Of a stretch of DNA of 64,000 nt, positions 3,441 to 64,000 are shown one piece after another. Position numbers and translations under genes: made by a program. The stretch spans positions 177,049 to 241,048 of the forward strand of contig CAUYUJ010002080.1 in the NCBI GenBank assembly GCA_963575745.1, given 5' to 3'. The DNA comes from Prorocentrum cordatum (taxonomy: Eukaryota; Sar; Dinophyceae; Prorocentrales; Prorocentraceae). Positions within the stretch are counted from its first letter, which is position 1. Every line of letters begins with the position of its first letter. The notes under the pieces were generated by a model. The model ran no database searches. It saw nothing but the letters and a program-made list of their open reading frames with translations, and was not told the DNA's origin.

Positions 3441-4424
3441 AAATGCTCCAGGGCAGAGTGCCAGGCCGCTGCTGACCCTGGCATGCGCTTGCACTGCACC
3501 TCCGATTACGTCGGCATCAAGCAATGAGGGCGCCGCCCCGGCCCCCCCCCCCTTAGGCAGTTGGGCACGAAGGGGGGTGGGCACCTTTCAGGTCATGAGA
3601 GTATAGCAGAATCAATCAGCATGGGCGTTGTGCGCATCACCAAACTCTGACGTGTTGCCCCAAATGGTAGGAGATCCGACATGGCCTTGAAGTGCCGAAC
3701 AGGACGGGAAGCGAAGTTGCAGAGAAACGCGTGGGGGAAAGGCTTTCCTGGCATCAACCAGCCCACCCGTCCAAGTCAGTAACCGACGTCATCTACCATG
3801 GCGACGCGATGCGAATCTCCATCTCCCTTCCCTTTTTTCCATTGCGGATGCGGAGAGATAGCATGCGTGGTACTATGCGTGTTGTACAGCATGCGCACAA
3901 TGCATAGACGGGTCACGGTCAGCGTGGGGGAATGGGACCTGCATAGCAGGTGCAACGCGGCTAACAGGGCATATGGGAATACGCGACCATCTCCCTCCAA
4001 CATATTCGGCTACCACAGCCGACGTGGCTCAACCCTGGCCCAGGTGCGCAGCGCTACGCACTAGCAGGGTTCTCGGGGCGCGCGACGCGGGGGGGCCACC
4101 CATGGCCTTCGCGGGCAGCGGCCACTATGGCACCATGGCCTTGCGGGCGTTGCAACAAGGGGTTCCAGTGCTGCGAGATGATCGAGATCCACAGCGGCAC
4201 GCGAGAAAATATCAAGGAGACAAAGGCAGTGAATCAAAGAGAGTGCGCGTCGACTGCGAGCTGGAACTGAGGCAGGGGGAGTGGGAACAATAGAGGGACG
4301 AAGAAAAGACGCTGCATGCAGGAGAGAAGTATACCGCTAGAGACCAGGTCTGCCGAGAACAGAAGGGGGGGGGCAAGCGGGGCCGCGCGGGCGGCCCAGG
4401 CCCGAGGGGGGAAAACAAGGGAGA
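3441..4424. other. No complete gene; possible exon near 4150-4275
   Basis: Mostly noncoding. From about 4145 a short plus-strand frame reads WPCGRCNKGFQCCEMIEIHS and continues hydrophilic to about 4270, with a CxxC pair. It looks like coding sequence but has no identified splice sites or family. A weak SL-like match at about 4015-4034 was rejected. Confidence 0.3.
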
Positions 4425-32445: not shown

Positions 32446-33604
32446 TCACCGATTCCAGCTCGGTGTTCCCCACCTTGAGCTGGTCCCCCTTGCCGCTTGC
32501 CCATGGGAAGACGAGGAGGAGGAAAAGGAGGAGATGACGAGATGAGAAGTTGGGAGAGGAGGAGGATCTCCAGGATTTCCGCCATCCCGTAGGGATAAAA
32601 AAGAGGGGGAGGTCAGACGCCAACTTTGGGGTTCAAGCCCTTCGAAACTATCGAGATATTCTCGTCGGGTCTTGGAAACCAGTAGCGTGCACAGTTTGCC
32701 TAAGCGCTTGAGTTGGGCCTGACTTGAAAACACCCATGCAGCACAACACCAGATCATCACACGATTGTGGTAAATTAAGGCCTGTGAGGGATCGACCCAA
32801 CCACTTGGTAAGTGCATTCTGCGTCCTCGGGGTAGACGGGAAGCAAACCATCCACGGATTGGAGTTGGAAGTGCCCACTTTTCAGCCAGTCGGGCAACGT
32901 TTTGATTGCCGAGCCTGTACACACGCTGCACGAACCACCACTTTTGGTCCGGACGTGCGCGGACGAGAAGCGCGCAACGGCAATAGGGGAAGGGGGGAAT
33001 GCGAGGCGCATGCTTGGGTCCTTCCCTTCGTCCGAGCGCCGGCTGAACTAATCAGTAGCGCTGGGATCGAGGCCTGCGCGAAGCAAGCGCGTCTGGCTTC
33101 AACCCGAGCGATCCTGACTGTATCAGCCTGGGGAGCACGAGCACGGCGGGCTGCTTCCTTCGCGAGCTCACCAACCACACAGATTCCTTGGATCATCCAG
33201 TTGAGCCATTTTCTTTCAGCAACATCTCTCCCGTCAAGGTGGGGTGGAACATGAATTATTGCGATGACTGGGTCGCGCTGCTGGCTGGCGGGGGTCCTGG
33301 CTGTGGCCCTCCATAGATCAGCCGGAGGCCTTGACGGCACGCGGAGGTGGCCTTCGTACCAACCCCTAGCTATTTCAGCACACTCGCTAACATACACGAG
33401 CGAGCCCAAGTAGAACTTGACAGCCCATTCGAGGGCCTGGAACTCTCCGCGGGGCACTGTTCGGCTGGCTCCCACCAGAACCCGAGGAGGTGTGGCTCCA
33501 GAGCGAAGGGCAGAACGGAAATAAAGCTTGCGATGGCGAAACCTACCCTGCGGAACCTACAGTCGTGGGCGTCGGCCCCCCCCGAAACATCCCCAAAGAC
33601 AGCG
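32446..33604 (-). pseudogene. RNase H domain and C-terminal region of host LINE
   Basis: The minus frame from 33604 reads FGDVSGGADAHDCRFRRVGF, matching the start of LINE RNase H domains (FxDxSGG...RRxGWA). A frameshift near 33430-33470 moves to the frame ending 32882: TVPRGEFQALEWAVKF (motif with catalytic E), LVYVSECAEIARGW (the usual D is replaced by E), HVPPHLD and GELAKEAARRAR (end motif). Downstream HNRVMIWCCAAWVFSS matches the Cys-containing C-terminal segment seen in dinoflagellate LINEs. In the intact enzyme this domain would degrade the RNA strand during cDNA synthesis. Here it is frameshifted and severed from RT by the nested insertion. Confidence 0.75.
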
Positions 33605-33615
33605 AAGGGTTCATT
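33605..33615. repeat. Target-site duplication, left copy
   Basis: AAGGGTTCATT immediately before the spliced-leader sequence; partner at 38927-38937 (AAGGGCTCATT, 10 of 11 identical). In the host LINE this encodes NEP on the minus strand. Confidence 0.82.
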
Positions 33616-33636
33616 CCGTAGCCATTTTGGCTCAAG
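33616..33636 (+). other. Genomic dinoflagellate spliced-leader sequence (exact)
   Basis: CCGTAGCC...GGCTCAAG matches all 21 fixed bases of the trans-spliced leader known from dinoflagellate mRNAs. The preceding T at 33615 satisfies the variable first base (D) but is also the last base of the target duplication. It forms the extreme 5' end of the nested LINE. This is not an SL RNA gene: the sequence after it continues straight into the LINE, not into a GT donor and SL RNA intron. Confidence 0.93.
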
Positions 33637-33904
33637 TTCGAAACGCTCCCTTGGCGCTTCGAGCTTGGGCGCTGCCAAGGGGTTGGCCCGAGCGTCCTGA
33701 GGTTAAGCCTCGCTTTCTTCTCCAGTCGTGCGCCAAAGCACGCGGTGTTCCAGCCTTCCGTTTGTTCAGTTCGCTGCGATGGGCGGGAAGCGTCTTTCTG
33801 AGAGGCGGGGACACGTGATTCGTCGACTGCTTCTTCGTCGAGGCATCGCAGGAACGCCAGTCGCAGCCAGTCTCGTCGCCGTGGAGCCTCACTTGACCCC
33901 AGCA

Positions 33905-34550
33905 TCCTTACGAAGCTCGAGCACATTGCAGACAGCATCACTGGCCTCAACCAAGTGGTTCTCCAGAGAACGACAGAGGTGAATGAGTTGCGGTCCGCGG
34001 TCCAATCCAGCATCGCTCGCCGTGGGGAGCTAGCTGATCAACTCGCACTTCTCGGGGGGAACGTCTCTCAGCGGCACGCGCAGCTATCTAAGGATCTGGC
34101 AGTCTCCCTTCGCGAACAAGACACATTTATTGAGAGCATGCGCAAGGGTTCCTTGGAGCCCAGACGTCTTTCGCGCTGGATGACAGCGGCATGCCAACAT
34201 CCAGCCGACAGCATAAATGTTCTGAGATCGAGGAGCAGCTGAGGGCCCTTCAGACCGCGCAGCAGGCATCCGCTCAGCAGATTGCTATTATCTTCTCCAC
34301 TTCCTCGGCCTCGCCCTCGGATTTGCCTTCGGCGGCCTCGCCCCCCCGCGCCCCTGCCTCTCGCCGAGCTGCCCTTGAACGCGTGCATCGCGCTGTGATT
34401 GCGGGTTTCACCAGAAAACTAATGCAGACCTCTCGTCGTCGCGCAGGTGAATCTTTTGCGCAGCTGGGCGTTCCCCAAGGACGTCCTCAACCCGCCATCC
34501 GCGCGTGCGACCTGACCAAGACGGTGGTGTTTAGACTTCGCTGATGGTTC
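33905..34550 (+). pseudogene. ORF1-like protein of the nested LINE
   Basis: Reads KLEHIADSITGLNQVVLQRT, then NELRSAVQSSIARRGELADQ and RHAQLSKDLAVSLREQDTFI: heptad-like, coiled-coil forming. After a frame change it continues EIEEQLRALQTAQQASAQQI and a Ser/Pro/Ala linker to about 34545. LINE ORF1 proteins typically bind the element RNA as coiled-coil trimers; here only the coiled coil is visible. Weakly protein-like sequence continues to 35030 (FLSNIAARPPL, HAFICQIYDALVAGIAH). Confidence 0.5.
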
Positions 34551-35209
34551 GCAAGCCTCTGACTTTCTTTCGAACATTGCAGCACGTCCACCCCTGAAGT
34601 CCCCCGGCCCTGTCTCCCCTGGTCAATTCTTCTCTCCGCGTGCGAAACGTGACCTGGGCCCTGGCACGCGCCGCCTGTTCCGCGCACGAGCGCGGGCCGC
34701 CGTCGCGTCGGCAGTCCAACCGACGGGGAAAGAAGTCGGCAGCGACGGCCTGGGCGGCGACATCTTCGTTCTTCGTCGCGCCGAAGATCTTGTCCTGATA
34801 TGGCACCTTGAGCTGGCGTCGAGCTCGCTCCCCCGCCCGCAGATGCGCACTGAGTTCGCCGCTGAACAGGTCGCAGAGCGTCACGCATTTATCTGTCAGA
34901 TTTACGACGCCCTCGTCGCTGGCATTGCGCATCTGAATGAGGGGGCCCCTCTTCAGCAGTTGAGGAACGGGCCATTGGCTGCGGGGGCCACTCACCTGTC
35001 TGCCCCGGCGCGCGGTGAGATGGCGAGCCAGTGTTTCCACTGCGATTGCCCCGGGGCGATGCGGGGCCTTCTCTCGCCGCGCTTGCATCTAATGCCCCGT
35101 CCCATTGCCCCGGGCCTCGGTCTGAGGGCGTTGATTTTTCCGTCTCGCCCGTGGCTCTCCACGAGCCCCCGAGAATTTCAACGAGTCAGGCTTTTGCGCG
35201 GACTCCTTC

Positions 35210-35985
35210 TTGTTTCAAGGTCGGATCGTGGAACGCGCGTGCTTTCTCTGCGGCGGTGCGGGGCCAGAGCGGGAAGGCCCCGCTTTGTTTCCAACGTTTT
35301 CTCTGGCGCTCGAAGGATCTAGACATCGTCTGCGCCCGGGAATCTCATGGCCAAATTGCTGACGTTACGGAATTATCCGAGTGGCTCGTGGCTTTTCCAT
35401 CGGTCATTCTCTTCTACCTCATCGGGCGTCGGCTGGTGGTGCGCGTCCACCCTCGTCTCCTTCTTCTTTTTACTTCTGTCGTTCACGCTTGCATCCTGGA
35501 AGGTCGGGCTCTTGCTACTCATCTCTCTGGCCCTCGCGGTTCAATGCGCATCGTGAATGCCCATGCGCCCAATGCCGACGAACCCCCCCCTTCTATCGTC
35601 GCGCGCTTGAATTGATACGTCGTGCCCTCCCGCCGCCCACGGAATCGCTGACGATTGTTATCGCCGACTGGAACTTTGCCTTTGCTTCTGAGGGGCGCGC
35701 CCGCGCGGGCGGCTCTGGCTGGGCTGCTGGACGCGAAGCGCGCCCCCCCCTGTGTGCATGCACATGCGCTGGGCGGGCGGAACTGCACCAGTCTGGGGGC
35801 ACGGGGAGGGAGGCGAGGGATGGCGCGATCATGCACGCTGCGCGCTTGGACCGTGCGTGCACTAATTCGCCCGCGGCTCTATGGCCAGACCCCACTGTTC
35901 GTGGCAGTGTCTTGGGGCGTCTTCAGTCGGCCACGGTCTCAGATCACCAGATCACATCCCCCCGGTCGTTCATCTTTTTGTGTTT
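35210..35985 (+). pseudogene. AP-endonuclease-like domain of the nested LINE
   Basis: Motifs in family order: FKVGSWNAR (N at about 35232), DIVCARESHGQ (E at about 35340, the metal-binding E), IVIADWNFAF (D at about 35666, matching GDFN), ARLDRACTN and TVSDHQITS (the final SDH, about 35937). A frame change lies between about 35560 and 35610. The domain would nick target DNA for primed reverse transcription. Catalytic residues are largely kept; the reading frame is not. Confidence 0.72.
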
Positions 35986-36519
35986 TCGCAGAGGAATGCC
36001 CCGAGGAGGTTGCTTTCCTGGGTCGCAGAGTCGGAACTTGTTGGGCAGCTTCTCAACGTGGCCGCCGAGCCCCTGACGCCCCCCCCCCCCCCCCCCCTAG
36101 GGAAAAACGTTCGTGGATCAAGGAGTTGATGTTTGAGGTCGCGGAGGCCGTCGTGGAGCCCCTCTCCCCCCGCATGGCCGATGCGACTGAACTTAAACAC
36201 GATCGTGCTTTTCAAGCTCTCGGCGCCTGGGCGCCTGGGGGCATCTTTCCTCTCGCCGACGCTATCCGCGCGCGTCCTGCTCTAGCTGCCCACTTCCCTG
36301 GCGGCGCCCATTGTGGCGCCAGCGCCCCCGCTCTCTGCGCCCGCGCGCAGGATCTTCACCTCGCCCTGCTGGGCGAGCAGGAGAGGGGGCTCGACAGGGG
36401 CGCTTCTCACATCTCTGAAGAGACACTAGATCCGCCCAGAAAGAGAATCACCTGACAGAAAATCACCAGGGCCAAGACGAAACGTAGGACTCGGCCCCAG
36501 GGGACGATTGACCATTACG

Positions 36520-37930
36520 ATTTGCCTACAAGTGTTTCCACAGAACAGGCTGTTGTTACGCTTAGTTGTCACTGGTCTCAGATCTTTGCTGCTCCAGCTG
36601 AAGATCGTTCTACGCGGCTTGCTCTTACAGCTTGTGTTGCTCCTTTCGCTAATGCACCTGCATCGGCCAGCTGTGCTACTGCACTGGAGGAAGGGGTGGA
36701 TGGTTAGTGAGTTTGACTGGAGAGTCTTGGCGAGGGGCCGGGTGGGTAGCATGCCGGGTGGAGATGGGATTCCGCCTTCTGCATGGCGGGTTGACGCAGC
36801 GCTAGACATTTTGCATGATTGCTAGTGCGAGCTCATCGTGCCCCGTCTGGTGAGATCCCAGCCGGCATGAAAGAGAGCCTTCTGGTGTTTCTCCCGAAGG
36901 AAATTCGCGAGCATGAGGTTGGGGAATCGGTTTGCCGTGGCACTTCGGAAACCAGGCCACTGAGCATGGCCAACACGGACGCCAAACTCCCCCCCTCGAT
37001 GGCCTGGGTCCCCCCTCGCAAGACCGCGTTGTAAGGCCTTCTGCGGGAAACGCAGAAGTGCTTCAAGGGTCGTGACATGCTGGTGAATAGTTTGCAGGCG
37101 GAGCTTTTTCTGCTTGAGAAGCACCTGAAGGACAGGTGCGCCGCCGGGCTGGCCCTCGGTGACTTCGAGTCTGCCTCTCCCTTTATTTCGATCCCCTGGG
37201 TTCTCCACGTTCTTGAGGCCACGAGCGCCCCCCAGATTGTCATCTGTTTTTTTTTCGGCGCATCTATGAAGGGAACCCTGCTGTGGCGATTCTTTTTGGC
37301 GAACGTTTTGACGAAATCCGGGCTGGTCGGGGCGCGAGGCAAGGGGGCCCGAGCTCCATGTTACTATTCGTCCTTGCTAATGAGCCCATCGTAGCATGGA
37401 TCCAATCTGAGTTGTCTCAACATGTTGAACTGTCCCTGGCGTATGCGGATGATCTCGGTTTTGGATTGCGGTGTCTATTTGATCGGGGTCAAGCCGCTGT
37501 TTGGGTGCCTCGCCTGTTTTCGCTCCGCCAGAGGTATCGCGCTGAATTTTGCCAAGTGTCAGATTGTCCTTGTATTAGAACAGCTCTTGGACCTGCTTAC
37601 AGATCTGCTCGCCGATCTGGGCCAGTTGTGTCCGCTGATTGAGCTCGCTATGAGAGTTAAGTGCTTGGGGATTTGGATTGGGGACCATGCCGAAAATGTG
37701 GTTCGGGGTGAGAGTAATTTCAAGCTTTCGAAGAGGACGAGGGGGGTTCGGGAGTTGGGACTGGGCCTTGCTCAGTCGATTGTTCTCTGTCTTGCATTAT
37801 GTACCTCGCTCCTGTACTTCACTCTGCAGCTCTATTCGCCGTCCGTCTCTCTCGTGAAGGCGTCTCGTTCGTGTGTCGCGCTGCTTACCGCTGGCCCCTA
37901 CAATTCACTCAACTTGGTCTTCCCTTAGAG
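36520..37930 (+). pseudogene. Reverse transcriptase of the nested LINE
   Basis: VTLSCHWSQIFAAP (36550), GGDGIPPSAWR (36755), ETRPLSMANTDAKL (36950, the upstream RT motif), LALGDFESASPF (motif A, about 37150), GARQGGPSSMLLFVLANEP (motif B, 37338), LAYADDLGF (motif C, catalytic YADD at about 37441), RGIALNFAKCQIVL (motif D, 37531). A stop follows KTAL at 37032, and frame changes lie near 36710, 36815, 37290 and 37470. Catalytic aspartates are intact, so disruption is recent relative to loss of motifs. Confidence 0.8.
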
Positions 37931-38379
37931 TTTCCGCCCCCAGCGCTGATTGCAGAAGCGACGGGGGCTTGTTACACTGCCAGGTGCGATGCTTCCCCTC
38001 AGATGCGTGCCTAGTATCCTGCCATCTTCGATGATGATGACTGGCGCCCGCTCGCCGCGTTCGCGGGCGAGTTCCCACCTCTTTCCTGTTCCGCCTCTTC
38101 GGCTTTAGCGGCTGGATTCCCTCCATGAACCTCAAGGTCCTTTGTGAGCGACCTGATGAGCAGAAACAATACATGACTAAGTTCAAGCTGCACCACCGCC
38201 CCGCCGACCCCCCCTGCCCTGGCCCTTCTAAGGCGCATGAGGAACTGGATCCCTGGGGTTCAGCTTCTGGGCGTTGCTCGTATGATGACATGTTTCAAGC
38301 CCTTATCTATCCGTACTAACATGTACCTTCCGCTTGCGGTCATTTGACTGCTTACCCGAAGTCTCTGCGCGAGTTCTCA

Positions 38380-38700
38380 TTATGCCCCGAAAGGTTGCCT
38401 CATGGGATGCCGCGACGGGAGCCGCGACCTTGACGATATGAAGCATTGCCTCAAATGTCCTCGTCTTCGAGATCTCCTTGGGCGTTGGATGGGCATTTGG
38501 ACCCCGACGTCTCCTGAGGCTCGCCCCGGCGTTTTTCCATTGTTTTTTCCCCCCAGAATGTGGGGCCCGACCGAAGCCTGCTTGTGGCTGTGCTATGTGA
38601 CGCATTCCTAGCCGCACACCATGCCTTCCGTCTCTCTCTGCCTGGTCTCCCCGACCAACACTCCTGAAGCACGGCTTCGCACTCAGGCTCGCAGGCGCTA
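38380..38700 (+). pseudogene. Post-RT Cys/His segment of the nested LINE
   Basis: MGCRDGSRDLDDMKHCLKCP suggests the C-H-C zinc motif that follows RT in many LINEs. HHAFRLSLPGLPDQHS and EARLRTQARR follow in other frames. It marks the 3' coding end; the element ends at 38926. Confidence 0.5.
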
Positions 38701-38926
38701 AGAGTGCCGACGGATCTGGGGTGCGCTGCAGCTTGCTTCCTTTACATAGCGCCGAGTGGTATTGCCGCCGATGGTCAGCTGGCTGCGCGGGGCAGCGGCT
38801 CGCTGACATTTGGGTGGCAAGCCCTCCTTTACATGTCGCGACGTCATGGCTCCAGCCGTGGCGTGAGCCTGCTGCGAAGAGAACCCTAGAGGCCCCCAGG
38901 CTCTGGCATTGAAAGAAAAGAGAACT

Positions 38927-38937
38927 AAGGGCTCATT
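38927..38937. repeat. Target-site duplication, right copy
   Basis: AAGGGCTCATT; see 33605-33615. Confidence 0.82.
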
Positions 38938-39641
38938 GGGCCCACTTCCCCAAGACACGGGCCCGAGCAGGTCTCCATGCAAGAGATCATTCCGCCCCCG
39001 AGATTCAGATGAGGGGGGGGGGGAGTGACAGGTCCAGGGGCCTGGGATGAAGCCTCTCATCCAACAACGCGGGTTGGCTTCAGGTTTGGCGACTGCTTCT
39101 GGAAGCAACGATGCCGACTGAATGTAAGCAGGCGATGATTCTTTTCGGTACACGTCCAACACCGATGCAGTGTCTCGCGGCTGACCTGGCAACGTTCACA
39201 GATGTTGTTCGCGCGCAAATGGGCGTCGAAACTTTGACTTTGGCCACGACAAATTACAGTCACCATGGAGACCATTTGCCCTGATAGCTGTCGCCCTCTC
39301 TTGGCGCGGGTGGGACCTGCCGCGAACTTCTGAAACATATTGCTAAGTGCATCCTCCAGCTCCGCTCCGCGGCGCAACCCTGCAGCTTGCCGCCGCTGCT
39401 TGAACTCCATCGTAGACTCGAGCTGCGGCGCGGCCTGGCCCAGGCACGCGAATTCGGCAGCTCCGAACTTCCAGGAGACACCATCCTTAGCACCGTCACT
39501 CTGCACATCCCACTCCGCAGGCGACGCGCGCGCCCACCCCGCCTCTTGCAGGTCGAGCGTAGTTGTCGAGAGCGCCCCCGGACATGGCGACTGCGCAGCT
39601 CGGGCACGATGCTCATCACATGCTTGGCTGCGGCTGGCCAC
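38938..39641 (-). pseudogene. Zinc-binding region after RT of the host LINE
   Basis: The minus frame 39641-39057 reads LDLQEAGWARASPAEWDVQS, later ANNICERCQVSRETLHRCWT with C-x2-C ... H-x-C. After a stop and frame change, NPRCWMRGFIPGPWT leads to the insertion point at SGPNEP. This is the usual link between RT and RNase H in RNase H-bearing dinoflagellate LINEs. Confidence 0.65.
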
Positions 39642-40199
39642 GCCGACCAGATAGACGGCCTGAGCAGCGGTTTCTGCGGCCGCGCCGAAAGCCAGAGGGA
39701 CGCGCGCCGCCTTGGAAGAAGAGCCCGTGGATCAGCTCCTGGGAGCCGCATGGCCAAGAGCGCGGTGAGACAGCGCCCTCTCTTCGAGGGCCCCGCGGCG
39801 GCCCCCGAACGCTTCCGCTGCCGCGGCGCGTTGGAGCCGAACGCGCCGAAGACCTGGCGACGCGCGCCGCCGATGCCCCGGGCCGCGCCCACCGCGTCTT
39901 CGCTGTCGCCTGCCGCTGCCGCGCAGCTTGAGCAAAGCATTGGCCGCCTTGGCGGCGCCCCCGCGCGCCGCGGCCCTGCCCTGGCGGCGCCCCGCGCTCA
40001 GGTCCGCGGCCGAGTGGGCTGACTGGAGCGCCGCCGGCAGCGATGCGCCTCGCCGCCGAAAAGCATCGACAACTGCAACCGCGTCGCAATCATGGGGGCA
40101 GGTGGCTTCGCTCTCGGGGGAGATGCCGAGGCCGAGATGCTTGAATTCCTTGACTGCGACGAGGGTTCTTTTGACGAGCGCTGCACGCGCGTGCTTCCG

Positions 40200-41430
40200 A
40201 GAACTTGTTGCCCGCTGAGAGAGATCATCGATCCCGGATGCATGGCGCGCGACCTCTTGCGCGCGAGCGGGGCCGGGCACCCCGCGAACCGGGCGCCTTT
40301 GCTGAGCCCCTGCGCGATCGAGCGCGCGGCTAGGAAAATGGGCTTCGGCTCGGAGCCGAGCTGCGCCGAGAGTTTCGGCTGAGGCACAGCTGCAGCTCCA
40401 AGAAGAGAATCGCTGGGGGGAGCCCCTTCTTGGCCGCGCACTTCACAAGCGGCCCCCGCTCGACGCCGTCGTTGAAGGCCTCCCCGTCCTGGAACTCATG
40501 CCCATGCGCGATGCTCAGCCTCGACTGGGGCTCGTCCTGGAGCACCCTGACGAACGCCCCCGTCGAGGGTGCCGTTGCGCCGCATCCCAGCGATCATCCT
40601 GCTGGGCTGACCCATCCTTCATCTGCGCTTCCCTGACCATCGGCCAGGCGACCAGGCGCGGCGCGGCGTCGGCAGACGGCCGACGACGCGGTCGCCGCCC
40701 GACTCCGCGGCGAGCAGCCTACCGATCATGCGCATGACTTGCCGCGGACAGGGGAGGCCCTCCTCGATCATGGCGAAGAGATCGCACGCGTCCCGGGGCC
40801 CCATCCCGCGGCAGGCGCTCGAAGTTGGCGGGCGAGGGGCGGCCCGCGCCCGAAGCCTGCGCGAGCCTCCATGCTCCGCGGCGCCGACCGCAGCTCACTC
40901 GCCGCCATCGGCTCGATCGCCTCGATCTCCGTAAGGGACCTGGCGAAGGTGGAAGTCTCCATGGTGCCCTCGCGAGACGCGGAGCCTCTCCATTTGGACT
41001 GACACTTCTCAACTTTCCCGTCAACGATGCCCGCGGGGTGAACGAGCGTGGCGGAGCCGTCGTCGTACCCGTCGAGCTCGGGCTCGTCGTCCTTGACGCT
41101 GCGATGAACCTGACTTTGCGATGCCGAACGGTCCCAATCTTGAAACTGCCGCAGCGATGGCGCTGCGGCCCGACTGGGCTCGCCAGGCTGCCCGACAACG
41201 CTTCTCTTCCCGATCTGTGAGCTGCTGAGCGCCCGGGTCGCCAGGCCTCCGCACGTCGGCCAGCCGCGCATTCCAGCGACCTTGCGAAGGCGGCAAAGCT
41301 GAGCCAGCCCCGTCGAGCGGCTGGTCCGCCAAGCGTCTGGCTGCCTCCGCCAGTAGCACCACTTGGCTCTCGCCGTTGCGCCTGCGAGTGCCGCGAGGCG
41401 CGCTGGATGACCGCGTGCAACCTGCCCCAC
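40200..41430 (-). pseudogene. Reverse transcriptase of the host LINE
   Basis: Right to left: GWGP (about 40800), ACDLFAMIEEGLPCPRQVMR then GDRVVGRLPTPRRAW (40790-40660), motif A-like QDGEAFNDGVERGPL (about 40490), AAKKGLPPAILFLELQLCL, motif B-like KGARFAGCPAPLARK (about 40295-40250), motif C GIDDLSQ (about 40232-40215), motif D-like HLGLGISPES. Each block is in a different frame, so the gene is heavily broken, but the order and both catalytic aspartates of motif C are visible. Confidence 0.6.
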
Positions 41431-41989
41431 CAGCCTGCCACCCCGCCCTTGAGCGGTTGACTCCGAACACCAGCCGGCGCAAGGGCAAGACCTGCAGCGT
41501 GAAGCCCTCGCGCCTGGAGAGCCCGGGCATTCGGGGGCCGTTGTGGCTGGTGGTGGCGCGCTCCGCTGCGCCGATCACGACTCGTTGGCCCAAGGACCTC
41601 CTTCTTCGACGGCGACGTCAACATCGAGCCCCTCCAGGTCGGGGCCACCGCCCGAAAAGCTCGAGGCAGCGGGCCCAGGGGCCGAGGAGGCCTCGTCGCT
41701 GGGCTTTTTGGGCCTCGCGGCTGGGAAAGCACCAGGGAAGAAATATTCGCAGCCGGCCTTGATGCGCTCGCGAGCTAGCTCGACCGTCTTGTGCCGCGCG
41801 GCCTTGGCAACGCTGTTCTTAGACCCCGCGGCGGGAGCGCGGGGGAAGGGCGGGGCATTCGTGGGGGCGGGGGCGACTTGTCAAGAACGCGTCGCCATCT
41901 GTCGACCCACGCCTCCCAAGCGAGCCTCGAGGCCACAGCGCGGGCTCCAAGGCACATCGGCCATCGCAGACGCGCCGTGCATGCACGGG

Positions 41990-42830
41990 AGACAAGTCTC
42001 AGAAGCAACCGCACTATCGATATGCGAAACACCTGCGCTCCCTACGCAAGTAATTTCTAGATCAGCTTTTTTGGTGAGTCCTTGCCCTTGGATTCGCTTC
42101 CAGAATGCCGAACGCTGAAACACATCGATGTCTATGTTGAGATCACCGACAAAGAACCACGGAAGCTGCGCACGCTGAATGAGAGCTCCAAGCTTGGCGA
42201 AACGTCGCAGATCTTCTCCGTCAAATCCAACTGACGGATGCGCATAGAAGACTATGGCGATGATGGAAGACCCAGCCACATGCAAGACGAGTGGAAGCAA
42301 TCCGTCGAAGACGTGTGAGCCTGCTGCGCAAAAATTGGGCACCGCAGAGGCCTTCGGGATGACCCTGCGACATGAAGAGGTCCCCGCCCTCGTTGGCCTT
42401 TCCCACGCTGGCCCTCGACGTCGCTCTTCCCGTCGCACGGGCTGGGTTGCCGATGGACCTCCACTTGACCACCCTGCCGTTGCGAGCCCACTTCGGGCGT
42501 GCGCGGCAGCCGGCGTGGGTCTCGGTGAGGCTGGTGCATTGGTACCTCTCCAGGGAGACAGGCGCGCTGATGCGACTCCAAGCCTCGGGTCCCAAGCATG
42601 TGACGCTCGCGAAGAACATGCTGCAGATCTGGGCTTGCGTCGCAGCCCTCGGCGCCCGGCGGCTCAGGCGGCTCGCTGGCCGAAGGGGCCGCGGGGCTCT
42701 CGGCCGCCGCGCGGCCTGGCAGCTGCGGGTCGACCTCCGCAACCTGCGGCGCCGCCTGCGAAGCTGCGTCCACGCCCGCAGCCGCAGCTGCCCGTCGCTT
42801 TTCCATCTCATCTTGGATCTTGGCCTCTGA
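41990..42830 (-). pseudogene. AP-endonuclease-like domain of the host LINE
   Basis: FFASVTCLGPEAW (about 42620), TSLTETHAG (catalytic E at about 42523), KANEGGDLF (42380), FFVGDLNIDID (about 42150, the GDxN motif), GVSHIDSAVAS (about 42020). A frame change near 42390 separates the two halves. The final SDH motif was not found. Confidence 0.65.
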
Positions 42831-58866: not shown

Positions 58867-59630
58867 CCTCCTCCTCCTCCTCCTCCTCCCCCTCCCCCTC
58901 CTCTTCCTATTCCTCTTCCTCCTCCTTCCCCTCCCCCTCCTCCCCCCCCCCGCCGTCCCCCTTCTCGCCCCCATCGTCTCCTCCTTCTCCACCTTGTTTT
59001 CCTTCTCTGCATGCTCAGCCTCCTCCCCCTCGTCCTCCTCGCCCTCGTCCTCCTCGCTCTCCTCTTTTCACGCCCCTCCCCTTCGTGCCCCTGCCCCTGC
59101 TCCTCCTCGTCCTGCTGCTGCTCATCCTCCCACCCCCCCTCCTCCTCCTCGTGACCCTGCTGTTGCTGGTGTTGCTGGTCCTGCCTCCCCCTCCTCCACT
59201 TCCCCCTCGTGCTCCTCCGCTTCCTCCCCCTCCTCTTCCCCCGCCCCCTTCCCCCCCCCCCCCCCCCCCCTTCTCCCCCCCCCCCCTCCCCTCCCCCCCC
59301 TCCTCCTCCCCGTCCTCCTCTTCCTCTTCCTTCTCCCCCTGCTATTGCTACGGCTCCTCCGCCTCTGGCCCCTCCTCTCCCCCCCCCCCTCCCCCCCTCC
59401 ACTTCCTCGCCCCCCTCCTCCGCCTCTCCATCCTCCCCCTCTTTTTCCTCCTCCTCCCCCCCTCCTCCTCGTCCTCCTCCTCCTCCTCCCCGTCCTCCTT
59501 CTCCTACTCCCCCCCTCCTCCTCCTTTCCTCCTCCTCTTCCTCTCCTCCTCCTCCTCCTCCTCCTCCTCCTCCTCCTCCTCCTCCTCCTCCTCCTCCTCC
59601 TCCTCCTCCTCCTCCTCCTCCTCCTCCTCC
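58867..59630. repeat. (TCC)n and C-rich pyrimidine tract
   Basis: About 760 bases of pyrimidine-rich sequence; perfect TCC triplets for the last ~90 bases up to the spliced leader. Open frames are artefacts. Confidence 0.97.
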
Positions 59631-59651
59631 CCGTAGCCACTTTGGCTCAAG
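59631..59651 (+). other. Genomic dinoflagellate spliced-leader sequence, one mismatch
   Basis: CCGTAGCCAC...GGCTCAAG: 20 of 21 bases match the SL (T to C in the T-run). It directly follows the TCC tract and directly precedes ATG (59652) and the LINE. Confidence 0.88.
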
Positions 59652-59716
59652 ATGCTGCCGGGGCGCTTCTGCCCGACAGTTTCCTTTTCACATCCACTGC
59701 ACTCTCGGCGCCCTGC

Positions 59717-61060
59717 ATGTCCTGGCGCAACCGCGCCCCATGGCGAGGTGGGCGACGCCGGCAGCCTGGCGCACAGAGCGGCACGTGGGCGTGGCAGTCT
59801 GATGATGACGCGCCTCCGAGGAAGAAGAAGCGTGGCGGCAAGAAGGGAGATGAGTGCGCCGCGCGAAGCGTGCGCCAGCACTGGGGGTACGCGCACTACG
59901 GGAATGAGAGCTGCAGCAAGTGCGGCGGTGCATATGTGGGCGGTGGTGTTCGCAATGAATGTGGTGAGCCACGTGAGTCTGCCCAAGCAGGTGCTGCACC
60001 TATGCCCCCCCATATTCTGCGTGAGTTGGAGAAGTGGGCGGTGCACTACCCTGCACTGGCGTCCGTGGCGAAGGACGCTGCTGGATCGCCGCCACCTCGT
60101 GTTCCCGTGCGCACTGATTGCGACCTGGATCGCATGGCGGCCTTGGAGCAGACGGCCCTGGCGAAGGAGGTCGAGCTGGCCACCAAGCAGGACCGTATCG
60201 CTGCCCAGCAGGCGCAGCGGCGCTTGGAACGGCATAAATGGCCACGTTGGAGGAGATGCGGCAGCACCATGTTGAGGCGGAGCGCAACCTGGACCTGGCG
60301 CGCCAGGCCGCGCGCGAGGCTGACGCGAAGAAGAACAGCTTCAACATTGGCCAGTTCAAGAAAGATATGCGCGCTGAGGTCGAGCGGCAGCGCCAGGCTG
60401 CCGCAGCTGCCGAGCGTGAGGCGCAGGACGGCTTCACCGAGCTGTGCGCCCCCGCTGCCGCCCCCGCCGCTGGCGCAGGAGGCGGCGCGCGCTGGCGCGG
60501 CGGAGGGGACGGAGCTGGGGTGGGCCGCGGGGCGCATGAGGGCGCAGGCGCAGCGGCTGCCGCCCATCGACCCCCCGACTTGCTGCAGACGCCGCTCGAC
60601 GACCTGCGCGAGCGGCGCCAAACGCATGGCCGCAGGTTCGAGCGCTGGGAGGCCGTCAAGCAGACGGAGCAGAGCATCGCGCCCCCCATGGATGACGCCT
60701 CGGAGATTGGCGAGTCTGAGTTTGGTGACCATCATCGCGATGAATTGGATCAGCTTCGCAAGCGGTCACTGGGGCAGGCGCTCACTGAGCCCGAGCGGAA
60801 CCGCGCGGAGACCATCTTGGTCAAGCAGGCAGCTCAGGAGGCTACGAAGCGACTTCGTACTTGCGCGAAGAAGGAGCTGCGAGTTTCGCCCGCGTGCTCG
60901 AGCAGGTGCAAGAATGAGGCCCCGTCGCGCGAGATGCTGGAGGAGCTGCCGGAGGAGGAGCGGGCGCTGCGGCGTCTTCCGCCTCGCGGGGGCCCAGCTC
61001 CTAGCAGGGCGTGTGGGCGAGTGAGCGGGCCCCCTCTTCGCTCTGCGCAGTTGTTTTATT
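59717..61060 (+). pseudogene. ORF1 of the third LINE
   Basis: ATG at 59717. Basic stretch DDDAPPRKKKRGGKKGDECA, then HWGYAHYGNESCSKCGGAYV with a CxxC pair and a further Cys (NECGEP), a possible zinc ribbon for RNA binding. A charged helix follows: ALAKEVELATKQDRIAAQQA, then after a one-base shift at about 60236 MATLEEMRQHHVEAERNLDL and EADAKKNSFNIGQFKKDMR. An Ala/Gly linker comes next, then PPDLLQTPLDDLRERRQTHG and PEERALRRLPPRG. The helix suggests coiled-coil oligomerisation as in LINE ORF1 proteins. Confidence 0.6.
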
Positions 61061-61065
61061 GTGCA

Positions 61066-61760
61066 ACGCCACGTATTGGAATGAAGTGGCCCTGTCTTTT
61101 GCACACGCGGTGAATCAAACATGCGACGGGTTTTTTTTCTGCGAGCATCACCTTGCGGAGGCGAAGGCGAAGCTTGCAAGAAGGAGATGCAATCATATAA
61201 AGTGGCGGCCTCACTTTCAGGCCGCCGCCCCCACCCCTGGAGGGGGCGCCCGCGGGGGGGTCGGAGCTGCGGTCTCTCGGGGACTTAGTTTTCGTAGGTT
61301 TCTGGTTGGCGCGGGGCGCGTGAAGGACCCGGGCCAAGGCACTTGTTGGATGTTTCTGGAGCTTCGGACCAAGCAGCCCATCATTGCGATTGGAGTCGCA
61401 CATGCGGTTTCGGACTTGGGCGTCTGCGGCGAGAATGTTTCGAGGCTTCAGGAGATCATGGAGTTCGCGGGTGCCCTGGCGGTCCCTTGGGCGCTGATGG
61501 GAGATTGGAATTTCCCTATCGAAGATTTGGAGATGTCTGGATTTACTCGACTAGTACGTGCCCGTGCTGCTGCCCCTGTAGGCGTTGACTTTACGCGTTC
61601 GCAGGGGAGGGGGGCCCTTATTGATTATGTGTTGGCCTCTGATGATATTGCTGGTTTTTTGAAGGTTGGCAAGTGCTCTCCCTCGCCCTTCAAAACACAT
61701 GCGCGCTTGAGTGTGGACATAGATCATGAGGTGGCGGAGCAGGTTCTCTGGAAGCGTCGT
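61066..61760 (+). pseudogene. AP-endonuclease-like domain of the third LINE
   Basis: NATYWNEVALSFAH (start motif), GFFFCEHHLAEAK (catalytic E in EHH), GGVGAAVSRGLSF, WALMGDWNFPIED (D and N at about 61500-61512), GRGALIDYVLASDDI (about 61606-61650), FKTHARLSVDID (TH in place of the usual SDH). All motifs lie in one open frame (61005-63248) with no ATG before the domain, so translation would depend on ORF1 continuity or reinitiation. It would cut target DNA for primed reverse transcription. Confidence 0.8.
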
Positions 61761-62499
61761 AGGCCAGCTCCTTTCCCAGAATGCGAAGGACCTGATCTGC
61801 CGTGGGAGGTCTTGTTGGAACAGTGCCGCGATGAAGATAAGGTCGAGGCCCCTGCATTCCTGAAAGAGAAGTTTTTGCCGCATGTGGCTGATAAGTTGTC
61901 TCCTGCTCTATTGGAGTATTACGCGTTATGGAACCGAGTCACGGAGAGCATGTATTTTTCGCGAGCGTGCGCATTCGATCCCGCTCCGCAGGGCATCGGT
62001 GAGCGAGCTGGGTATTTGTGTTTCTCTCGCGGCAGAGTTGGACGCCGCGGGTTTGCAGGTCAGTCACTTAGGCAACCAGCCTTTTGTTTCTGGGCGCACC
62101 TATCGCAGAGCCTCTGGGAGTACCGGCTTAGTTTGGCCAGGAAGTCTAAGGTTGCTATTGATAGGGTTGCTGCGATAGTGGTGCCTCTCGTTTTCAAAGT
62201 GGAAGAGCATGCGATTCCTGGAGATGTCCGTCCTGCTGGGTGGTGGCGGGCTCAGCTAGCCAGCTTGCCCCAGGGCGTGCCAGGTCTCGATGCGATCACC
62301 GACGCATGTAGTATCACTCTGACTAAGGCGTGGACAGCTGCGCGCTCAGAGTCCAAGGCCAAGATGACGGCTTGGCTGCTGCGCTGTCTTCCCAGACGAG
62401 CCAAGCGAGTTCACGCTTGGTTGAAGCGCGACCAGGGCGGGGATCTTGAGCACCTCGTTACCCCTTCTGAGGTCCTGCAACTCCCTGACGACCTCATGG

Positions 62500-64000
62500 C
62501 CAATAGAGAAAAGTATTGGAGGGGCTATTTGGAAAACAGTCCTGAGAAACGAGAGAGATTGTCAGGGGTGTTGGATGAGCCGTGGGTTGTCGCGCTGGCG
62601 GCGGCGGGGGATCTGGGACCTCTAGGGGCGCTTGATGTGCATCGAGCGGCGCGGGTGTTCAAGACTGACGCGGCCGTGGGGGGTGATCACTGGGCCCCGC
62701 GTTCCCTGTTACTGCTTCCTCCGTCGGCTGTTGGGGTTTATGCTGAGCTCTTCAATCAGCGCGAGCGCTACATAATGTGGCCCACCCAAACCATGCTTGG
62801 AATCATCTCTCTCCTCCCGAAGGCCAAGGATGCGGAGCGTCTTATTTGCAAATGTGCCACCTTGTATCGAGTCTATTGCAAGGCTCGAGGGCAGGAGATT
62901 AGTTCCTGGACCACTGAGCGTGCTGCTTTTCGGGGCACTGCTATTCGAGGGTCCTCTGCCTTGGTTGCCGCCCTGTTGCGTGACGTAGGTCATGAGATAG
63001 CCTCGCATATGGACATGCAATCTGTCGGCTTGTATTGGGACCTTACGAAGTTCTTTGATGCGGTTAACCCTTGTCGCCTGGCTGGATTTGCCATGGACAT
63101 GCGGCACCCTGTGCACCTCCTGTACCTGGGGATTGTTATGCATGAGGCCCCTCGCATCTTGGAGGTTGGGTTTTTTTTTTTTTTCCTGATATCATTCCTA
63201 CAGGCCCCGGGGTGCCTCCAGGTTGCGTGCAGTCTATGGCGCGGGTGAAGATTTATATGTACGACGTGCTGGACTTTGCGCGTGCCAGCTTTTCCCCAGC
63301 GCGGGCGGGAGCTCATGTGGACGACATCACCCAAACTCAGCAGGGTTCGTTTGATGAGATCGTCAATGCCATTGTGCCTGCAGCCGCGTGGCTACATCAT
63401 CAGCTTGAAGCAGCTGGTACCGTGATTTCTAACAAGGGTTCTATGGTTTGTTCTAGTGTTGCTCTGGAGCGGGCTGCCATTACTCGGTTGGATAGTGATG
63501 GCATCAGACTTTGTTGCGAGCGTGCCGCGCGTGATCTGGGGGTCATGACCGCGGCTGGCAAGAGGCGCTGCACGCGCAAGGTCAAGGAGCGGCAGCGTAA
63601 GGCTCGCAAGAAGGCCCAGAAGGTGTCTTGCCTCACGAAGCTGGTTAGTCGAGCCAGCCATTTGTGCAAGCCCGCCGCGTTGGCTGTCGGGCCCTGTGGC
63701 CACGAAGTTTTGGGGCCCACGCCTAGCCAGGTTTAAAGCATGAGGGCCCAGGCGGCCATGTGCTCTGGGCGGTGGTCGTCTGGGGCTTGTACTACCTCGG
63801 TCTTGGGGCTTCTGGGTTCGGCCAAGGATGACCCCCAGTTTAGGCTCCGGTATGAGCAGTTGTTCAGTTTTGCTAGTGTCTGGAAGCACTTGGACCACTC
63901 CCAGAGAATGATGGCCAGTAAAACGTGGGAACGTATCAAGGTGAAGTTTGGTTCTACCCGACATCGATGGAGAGTTGTTCGGGGTCCTAACGCCGCCACC
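62500..64000 (+). pseudogene. Reverse transcriptase and following region of the third LINE
   Basis: VFKTDAAVGGDHWAPRSLL (about 62655), IISLLPKAKDAERLI (62805), RVYCKARGQEISSW, GLYWDLTKFFDAVNP (motif A, 63030), GPGVPPGCVQSMAR (motif B, 63203), AGAHVDDITQTQ (motif C, HVDD, 63308), VISNKGSMVCSS (motif D). A T14 run at 63171-63184 separates motifs A and B by a frame change; 12 or 15 T would restore it. LGPTPSQV is followed by an in-frame TAA (63734-63736), after which the same frame stays open to 64000 (SMRAQAAMCSGRWSS ... FASVWKHLDHSQRMM), so the protein originally extended beyond the window. Confidence 0.82.

What the first reader, a model, noticed from the sequence alone, without database searches (positions are those of the whole stretch)
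33605..38937. A LINE inserted with the spliced leader as its exact 5' end and an 11-bp target duplication
Seen: AAGGGTTCATT at 33605-33615 is followed at once by the 21 fixed SL bases; the element ends with a purine-rich A-containing tail at 38926, followed by AAGGGCTCATT. Removing 33616-38926 plus one target copy restores an open minus-strand frame in the host LINE (GSGP-NEP-FAVFGDVSGG). Known: dinoflagellate mRNAs receive the SL by trans-splicing, and SL relics occur in retroposed host genes. Inference: this LINE's own RNA was trans-spliced and then copied full length, so trans-splicing is part of the element's life cycle and may supply the capped 5' end needed for translation.
Basis: partly seen in the sequence, partly recalled or inferred. 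Interest (0 to 1): 0.95.

Follow-up and report, generated by a model that had tools for sequence, protein, structure and literature searches.

The report
Spliced-leader-headed LINE retrotransposons in a dinoflagellate
In this dinoflagellate genome many jumping genes of the LINE type begin exactly with the short leader that the cell splices onto its messenger RNAs, which suggests that they copy themselves from host-processed messenger RNA, often into simple CCT or AGG repeats.

Summary
LINE E1 (33616-38926) starts with an exact spliced leader (SL), ends in a purine-rich tail and has an 11-bp target duplication (10/11). The window also holds a fresher SL-headed LINE, E2 (59631 to about 65800), which the finding did not mention. 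The host assembly (4.13 Gb; almost surely Prorocentrum cordatum) has 24,192 SL sites. Of 20 SL sites followed 6 kb downstream, 13 lead into reverse transcriptase, all in sense. E1's first 61 bases recur behind SL at two other sites, one of them a LINE with a clear endonuclease. Inner SL relics (exact in 9 of 80 SL sites) show that SL-headed copies were trans-spliced and copied again. Of 80 SL sites, 50 follow pure pyrimidine or purine tracts (background 7%). I conclude that SL trans-splicing is a normal step in these LINEs' cycle. Renewal in every cycle and the cap's role are inferred; no RNA was seen.

The parts
33605..33615 (+). left copy of E1's target duplication (AAGGGTTCATT; last T may belong to the 22-nt SL)
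33616..33636 (+). DNA-encoded spliced leader, exact, 5' terminus of LINE E1
   Evidence: 0 mismatches; 0 in 100 shuffles
33637..33697 (+). first 61 bases of E1 after SL; shared at 81-82% with two other SL-headed copies (L014, and L110 = L142)
33900..34150 (+). E1 ORF1-like stretch (frame 1), looks like a coiled coil by eye
   Evidence: read from the translation; not tested
35200..35680 (+). E1 EEP endonuclease remnants (GSWNAR 35226; ADWNF about 35660), frame-shifted
   Evidence: tblastx to L024
36740..37500 (+). E1 reverse transcriptase remnants (YADD at 37442)
   Evidence: RT profile E 0.001; L021, L024
38911..38926 (+). E1 3' purine-rich tail GAAAGAAAAGAGAACT
38927..38937 (+). right copy of the target duplication (AAGGGCTCATT, 10/11)
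38938..42200 (-). part of the older LINE-like host of E1 (GDLN 42147; CxxC...H...C 39200); extent uncertain
   Evidence: motifs only, no profile match
32900..33604 (-). other side of that host; joined minus frame open 167 codons across the junction
59530..59630 (+). CCT-rich tract, 5' flank of LINE E2
59631..59651 (+). spliced leader (1 mismatch, CCACTTTGG), 5' terminus of LINE E2
59652..64000 (+). LINE E2 (EEP GDWNF 61500; RT HVDD 63314); continues past the window to about 65800, where it meets CCT tract again

Best explanation
E1 is a full-length retrotransposed copy of a LINE mRNA that had received the dinoflagellate spliced leader, and it is one of many. In this genome SL is the usual 5' terminus of LINE groups that are not alike at the DNA level. 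Proposed cycle: (1) an inserted SL-headed copy is transcribed, probably by read-through from outside, since some copies start their ORF right after SL and have little room for a promoter of their own [inferred]; (2) the transcript is trans-spliced, either at the AG inside the old SL (CCGTAG^CC), leaving an inner relic [shown by relics], or at the old SL's own terminal AG, which renews a single SL [inferred]; (3) the SL mRNA gains the host cap and is translated [inferred]; (4) the LINE's EEP endonuclease and RT copy it fully, SL included, into a new site [copies shown; the machine inferred], often inside CCT or AGG tracts, with one tract strand preferred in some families [shown by flanks].
For: SL exact with duplication and tail at E1. 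Second SL-headed LINE in the window, CCT tract on both sides. Genome: 12,102 + 12,090 SL sites at up to 1 mismatch, reversed-pattern control 0. Of 20 SL sites followed 6 kb, 13 have RT (3.1-4.4 kb on) and 10 have EEP (1.3-2.4 kb on), none antisense; Pfam listed RVT_1 in 7 of 13 pieces submitted, 4 above its cut-off. Two copies of one family, 91% alike over 5.7 kb, both begin SL|ATG. LINE-side test: 38 of 40 with SL at 0-3 mismatches, plus one decayed and one partly deleted; the reversed SL never came under 9 mismatches. E2 family: the 10 viewed matches that reach the first 30 query bases (8 distinct sites, E2 included) have SL at 0-3 mismatches. Inner relic exact in 9 of 80 SL sites, near in 4, weak in 5, shifted control 0. 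SL 90% alike between 17 copies against 60% for the 27 bases next to it. T precedes CCG in 72 of 80, fitting the 22-nt leader. Tracts: 50 of 80 SL sites against about 7% background; 32 of 40 LINE-side copies.
Against: No RNA evidence. Most copies have one SL only, so renewal in each cycle is not proven for them. The 80 SL sites are exact matches from the first contigs of the listing, not a random draw. The RT profile was built from 7 of the 13 loci it counts, and one of the other 6 (L027) is a 91% copy of a model locus. 7 of the 20 followed SL sites gave no RT match (one, L031, a weak EEP match). The LINE-side sample is one group and needs an exact 19-base block near the 5' end. E1's likeness to L014 and L110 is limited to about 61 bases; no DNA or translated match was found further in. 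Duplications cannot be read in repeat tracts, so a duplication is supported by E1 alone; the 3' ends seen in tracts have no poly(A). 7 of the 30 E2-search loci viewed show no SL upstream; not followed. E1's own group is mixed in tract strand.
Confidence: 0.85

Rival explanations
1. SL was captured once per family and is now a DNA-encoded 5' end or promoter; RNA starts at it and trans-splicing is no longer needed.
For: No inner relic in 62 of 80 SL sites. Song et al. (PMC6050394, passages seen) propose that a retroposed SL carries a promoter motif TTT(G). ATG follows SL at once in 14 of 80.
Against: Inner relics with an exact outer SL (9 exact of 80) need re-addition. SL stays near-perfect while adjacent bases diverge. 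The variant T11G recurs in 7 of 41 SLs across subfamilies, as expected if drawn from SL RNA variants. Purifying selection on SL could mimic the conservation.
Confidence: 0.17
2. SL-headed copies are by-products: rare master copies with their own upstream promoter make RNA that is trans-spliced like any host mRNA, and the SL copies are dead ends.
For: A rare master class (under about 5%) would be missed in 40 sampled ends.
Against: Inner relics show that SL-headed copies were themselves copied. None of 40 ends shares more than pyrimidine tract upstream. SL-headed copies with long open frames exist (L015, stop-free frame of 1,869 codons; Pfam RVT_1 and EEP).
Confidence: 0.2
3. The LINE inserts into SL RNA genes, as SLACS, CZAR and NeSL do, so SL is target, not element.
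For: SL-exon-targeted LINEs are known (PMC4640811, passages; SLACS and CZAR as such recalled).
Against: Upstream of SL lie pyrimidine or purine tracts, (CA)n, (ATC)n or other DNA that differs from copy to copy; the 3' flank is CCT tract in L015, L017, L027 and E2; the elements carry EEP.
Confidence: 0.01
4. The RT jumped at the end of synthesis from LINE RNA to SL RNA (template switch), without splicing.
For: Jumps to small RNAs are known for other LINEs (recalled).
Against: A jump should carry SL intron bases and ragged joins. In the families with several copies the element begins at the SL exon's last base, and the exact inner relics start right after the AG in CCGTAG.
Confidence: 0.02
5. 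Assembly join or chance match at 33.6 kb.
For: None found.
Against: Shuffle control 0; the same junction recurs at other loci.
Confidence: 0.005

Closest known systems
DinoSL-tagged retrogenes of dinoflagellates (Slamovits and Keeling 2008, recalled; PMC6050394 and PMC12014239, passages seen)
   Same: A genomic SL or truncated inner relic CCATTTTGGCTCAAG marks a copied trans-spliced mRNA.
   Different: There the copied RNA is a host gene and the copying machine is unknown (PMC6050394 favours Ty1/copia LTR elements). Here the copied RNA is the LINE itself.
Trypanosomatid L1Tc/ingi LINEs with Pr77 (PMC8190864, PMC4035085, passages)
   Same: LINEs living in a host with SL trans-splicing.
   Different: They use an internal promoter plus an HDV-like ribozyme and make unspliced RNA. 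Here SL is the 5' end, and Rfam found no match in the 6 loci given.
SL-exon-targeted LINEs: NeSL (PMC4640811 passages); SLACS, CZAR (recalled)
   Same: LINE next to SL sequence.
   Different: There SL is the insertion target; here it travels with the element and the target differs.
Microsatellite-targeted LINEs such as Togen and HERO (PMC4640811 passages); Dong (recalled)
   Same: Insertion into simple repeats.
   Different: The passages on those families mention no SL at the element's end. Here the elements encode EEP and favour CCT or AGG tracts.
Trans-spliced transposon RNAs of Hydra (PMC12220107, passages)
   Same: About 30% of transposon Iso-Seq reads carry SL.
   Different: The passage seen describes RNA only; it does not mention SL at the 5' ends of genomic copies.

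Membership tests
LINE (EEP-type non-LTR retrotransposon) | reverse transcriptase domain | tested here: met
   E1 weakly; E2; 13 of 20 SL loci; Pfam RVT_1
LINE (EEP-type non-LTR retrotransposon) | EEP endonuclease upstream of RT | tested here: met
   E1 motifs and tblastx; E2 motif and weak profile match; 10 of 20 loci; L142; Pfam PF03372
LINE (EEP-type non-LTR retrotransposon) | target duplication and A-rich 3' tail | tested here: inconclusive
   E1 has both; the 3' ends seen in L015, L017, L027 and E2 run into CCT tract without a poly(A) tail
LINE (EEP-type non-LTR retrotransposon) | target-primed reverse transcription | not testable with these tools
   needs biochemistry
Copy of a trans-spliced mRNA | SL exon ending exactly at its splice site | tested here: met
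   same junction in several copies of a family
Copy of a trans-spliced mRNA | SL-bearing RNA of the element | not testable with these tools
   no RNA data held
SL-exon-targeted LINE (NeSL, SLACS) | the same SL-gene sequence on the flanks of copies | tested here: not met
   flanks differ between copies or are tracts
Pr77-type trypanosomatid LINE | HDV-like ribozyme at the 5' end | tested here: inconclusive
   Rfam, E up to 1, 6 loci given: no match; a divergent ribozyme could be missed
Microsatellite-targeted LINE | insertion in one repeat type | tested here: inconclusive
   50 of 80 SL sites in pure R or Y tracts against about 7% background; one family 5 of 5 R, the block group 13 of 15 Y and 32 of 40 Y, 0 R; but another family 0 of 4, E1's group mixed, and E1 itself not in a tract

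The most novel reading that the evidence does not exclude
SL trans-splicing is an obligate, self-renewing step for most LINEs of this dinoflagellate. The elements have given up their own promoter and 5' UTR, take the whole functional 5' end (leader and cap) from the host, and renew it each cycle because the leader ends in a splice acceptor. Their RT is thus adapted to SL-headed RNA, which would also explain why host mRNAs are so often retroposed in dinoflagellates.
Probability: 0.45. Interest if true: 0.93.

Novelty: new variant of a known kind. Interest (0 to 1): 0.85.

Why it matters
Which retroelement makes the many SL-tagged retrogenes of dinoflagellates is described as unknown (PMC6050394 passage). 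LINEs that copy their own SL mRNA point to LINE machinery and make the question testable. It would also be a case in which a mobile element's 5' end is supplied in trans by the host's splicing system, the reverse of the Pr77 route in trypanosomatids. The SL count in this genome (24,192 at up to 1 mismatch) against 496 and 244 reported for two Symbiodinium genomes (PMC8045281 passage; other search method) suggests that SL sites are not a plain proxy for retrogenes: here many are LINE heads.

Tried and rejected
Pfam on X-read plus frames of E1 and E2: no hits. PDB sequence search with one E2 frame: none. Protein database search with E2 ORF2: one hit, an EEP-like protein by eye, too few to use. 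Conserved hairpin after SL: rejected, since 333 of 2000 permutations reached the observed pairing and two other registers paired as well. Rfam for a ribozyme in six LINE loci: none. Host-frame homology across the E1 junction: not significant. SL in the viral and prokaryote collections: 3 contigs; I saw no LINE behind the SL, but read only 3,400 of 7,157 bases of L001 and ran no profiles. Asked and never answered: whole-genome count of block copies with SL, whole-genome count of SL plus relic, DNA search with E1's 5' end.
Full report
WHAT IS THERE. At 33616-33636 the dinoflagellate spliced leader is exact; 100 shuffles gave no match at up to 3 mismatches. It is preceded by AAGGGTTCATT. 5.3 kb further on, after a purine-rich tail, AAGGGCTCATT follows. 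That is the only copy with at most one mismatch in the 2 kb searched, and it sits exactly at the tail. Between them lies a LINE (E1) in poor condition. Pfam finds nothing in its three plus frames, but EEP and RT motifs, a weak match to an RT profile and translated similarity to the EEP and RT of other LINEs of the same genome, in order and in sense, identify it. The claim that excision restores a host frame is only weakly supported: a 167-codon minus frame is open across the join, but a plus frame is open there for 123 codons too, and nothing homologous crosses it significantly.

A SECOND CASE IN THE SAME WINDOW. At 59631-59651 another SL (one mismatch) follows directly on a CCT tract and is followed by a fresher, different LINE, E2, with EEP and RT motifs. 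Read past the window, E2 ends at about 65800 and runs into CCT tract again.

THE GENOME. The window lies in G000, 4.13 Gb in 21,875 contigs. C1 is 3,562,531 bases long, like the 3.56-Mb largest scaffold of Prorocentrum cordatum CCMP1329 (4.15 Gb, GC 59.7%; PMC10666404, passages), so that species is almost certain. SL at up to one mismatch occurs 12,102 + 12,090 times; the reversed pattern 0 times.

SURVEY FROM THE SL SIDE. The listing shows 100 places, all exact and in contig order. I skipped the first (near a contig end), fetched the next 20 with 6 kb downstream and the following 60 with 100 bases on each side: 80 of the 100. Of the 20, 13 have an RT match 3.1-4.4 kb and 10 an EEP match 1.3-2.4 kb downstream, none on the opposite strand. 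The profiles came from 7 (RT) and 5 (EEP) of these loci, so 6 of the 13 RT loci lie outside the model, one of them (L027) a 91% copy of a model locus. Pfam listed RVT_1 for the 7 model loci, 4 above its cut-off (L015, L017, L019, L021) and 3 below it (L020, L028, L029); 6 further pieces submitted gave no RVT_1. Seven loci (L012, L014, L018, L022, L026, L030, L031) gave no RT or EEP match at E 0.01; with filters off L031 gave a weak EEP match. L015 and L027 are 91% alike over 5.7 kb and both begin SL|ATG; L015 has a stop-free frame of 1,869 codons. Compared by their 100 bases behind SL, 42 of the 80 sites and E1 fall into groups of two or more; three of the 42 (L116-L118) are a tandem repeat with the same flanks, not LINEs; E2 grouped with none. 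Of 71 local matches, 29 begin within 10 bases of SL on both sides and 55 are in register to 6 bases. E1 groups with L013, L014, L098, L103 and L110; its own direct matches are L014 and L110, both from base 1, and L103, from base 8. Beyond about 61 bases E1 shows no DNA or translated match to L014 or L110. L110, read 4 kb further as L142, has a clear EEP (E 2.6e-32), so an E1-like 5' end does head another LINE; L014 gave no EEP or RT match.

SURVEY FROM THE LINE SIDE. A 19-base block of the 5' UTR of one LINE group occurs 1,134 + 1,119 times, reversed control 0. I took the first 40 listed copies without regard to SL. SL mismatches: 0 in 28, 1 in 7, 2 in 1, 3 in 2, 7 in 1 (decayed, right place) and 8 in 1 (L143 keeps the first 8 SL bases and lacks the rest). 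SL start to block is 48 bases in 27 copies, and 30 to 76 in the other 13; the reversed SL never came below 9 mismatches. Upstream of SL 32 of 40 are pure pyrimidine tract, none purine. With low-complexity masking on, 29 of 780 flank pairs match each other, and every one of these matches is at least 85% pyrimidine: apart from tract, nothing upstream is shared. (CA)n and other sequence occur too. For E2, a DNA search gave 35 matches, of which 30 were viewed. The 10 viewed matches that reach the first 30 bases (8 distinct sites, E2 included) have SL at 0-3 mismatches; 13 more distant ones have it at up to 4; 7 showed none in the part read and were not followed; two short unviewed matches also reach base 5.

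REPEATED ROUNDS. An inner relic CCATTTTGGCTCAAG directly behind a perfect SL occurs exactly in 9 of 80, nearly in 4 and weakly in 5; the same test 50 bases further on gave 0. In the LINE-side sample 2 of 40 have an exact and 1 a near relic (L155, L157, L075). Such a relic arises when an SL-headed copy is transcribed, spliced again at the AG inside the old leader and copied. So SL-headed copies have been parents, not only end products. As no SL-less parent was seen in the 40, single-SL copies should come either from splicing at the old leader's terminal AG, which renews it, or from RNA that starts at a DNA-encoded SL; a rare SL-less master is not excluded. Renewal is favoured by SL being 90% alike between 17 copies (of the first 20) whose next 27 bases are 60% alike and by the T before CCG in 72 of 80, but is not proven.

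TARGETS. In 50 of 80 SL sites the 20 bases upstream are pure pyrimidine (35) or purine (15) tract (at least 90%), against about 7% of background positions. By group: one is in purine tracts 5 of 5; the block group in pyrimidine tracts 13 of 15; another in neither, 0 of 4; E1's group is mixed (3 pyrimidine, 1 purine, 2 neither). L015, L017 and L027 have CCT tract at both ends; L020 has purine tract at both. E1 itself lies outside such a tract, inside an older LINE-like stretch.

MECHANISM. Shown: LINEs with SL at their 5' end and the element starting at SL's last base, at many places, some with long open frames and some with nested leaders. Inferred: read-through transcription, trans-splicing in each cycle, capping and translation by way of SL, copying by the element's own RT. 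Insertion into SL genes, template switching and assembly error are unlikely or excluded (see rivals).

WHAT IS KNOWN. SL-tagged host retrogenes are well known (PMC6050394, PMC12014239; passages); transposon RNAs with SL are reported in Hydra (PMC12220107, passage); microsatellite- and SL-exon-targeted LINEs are known (PMC4640811, passages); trypanosomatid LINEs use their own promoter and ribozyme and make unspliced RNA (PMC8190864, PMC4035085, passages). I found no paper describing LINEs whose genomic 5' ends are SL: searches (listings), and passages of PMC3229502, PMC7245778, PMC11453091, PMC10235124, PMC10666404, PMC8045281 and PMC4558846. The library lacks most subscription papers, so this is no proof of novelty.

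Noticed in passing
window 59631-64000 (to about 65800 in G000:C2080): A second, fresher SL-headed LINE with CCT tract at both ends, not in the finding.
   Followed up: yes
L015, L027, L017 near 5.6-5.8 kb behind SL: Their 3' ends share TCAAGGT(T)ACGTTC just before the CCT tract. It resembles an SL exon end plus GTACG, the bases after SL in L003. Meaning unknown.
   Followed up: partly
SLs of the E2 family and of the first 20 block copies: SL variant T11G (CCATGTTGG) in 7 of 41 SLs across subfamilies; possibly a variant SL RNA gene.
   Followed up: partly
L001 (IMG/VR contig), 2746-2913: Two exact SLs in an AT-rich virus-like contig; behind the second lies a less AT-rich, host-like open frame, as if an SL mRNA had been retroposed into it.
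   Followed up: no
L003, SL at 4334-4354: A contig binned as Dehalococcoidia that looks like eukaryotic ribosomal DNA with an SL in the spacer (by eye); likely a binning error.
   Followed up: no
L116-L118 (G000:C39:19904-28201): Three SLs with the same flanks on both sides: a tandem repeat, not LINEs as far as seen.
   Followed up: no
L082, L114, L121; L022, L091: Different SL-headed inserts in copies of the same upstream repeat: some non-tract targets may be preferred too.
   Followed up: no
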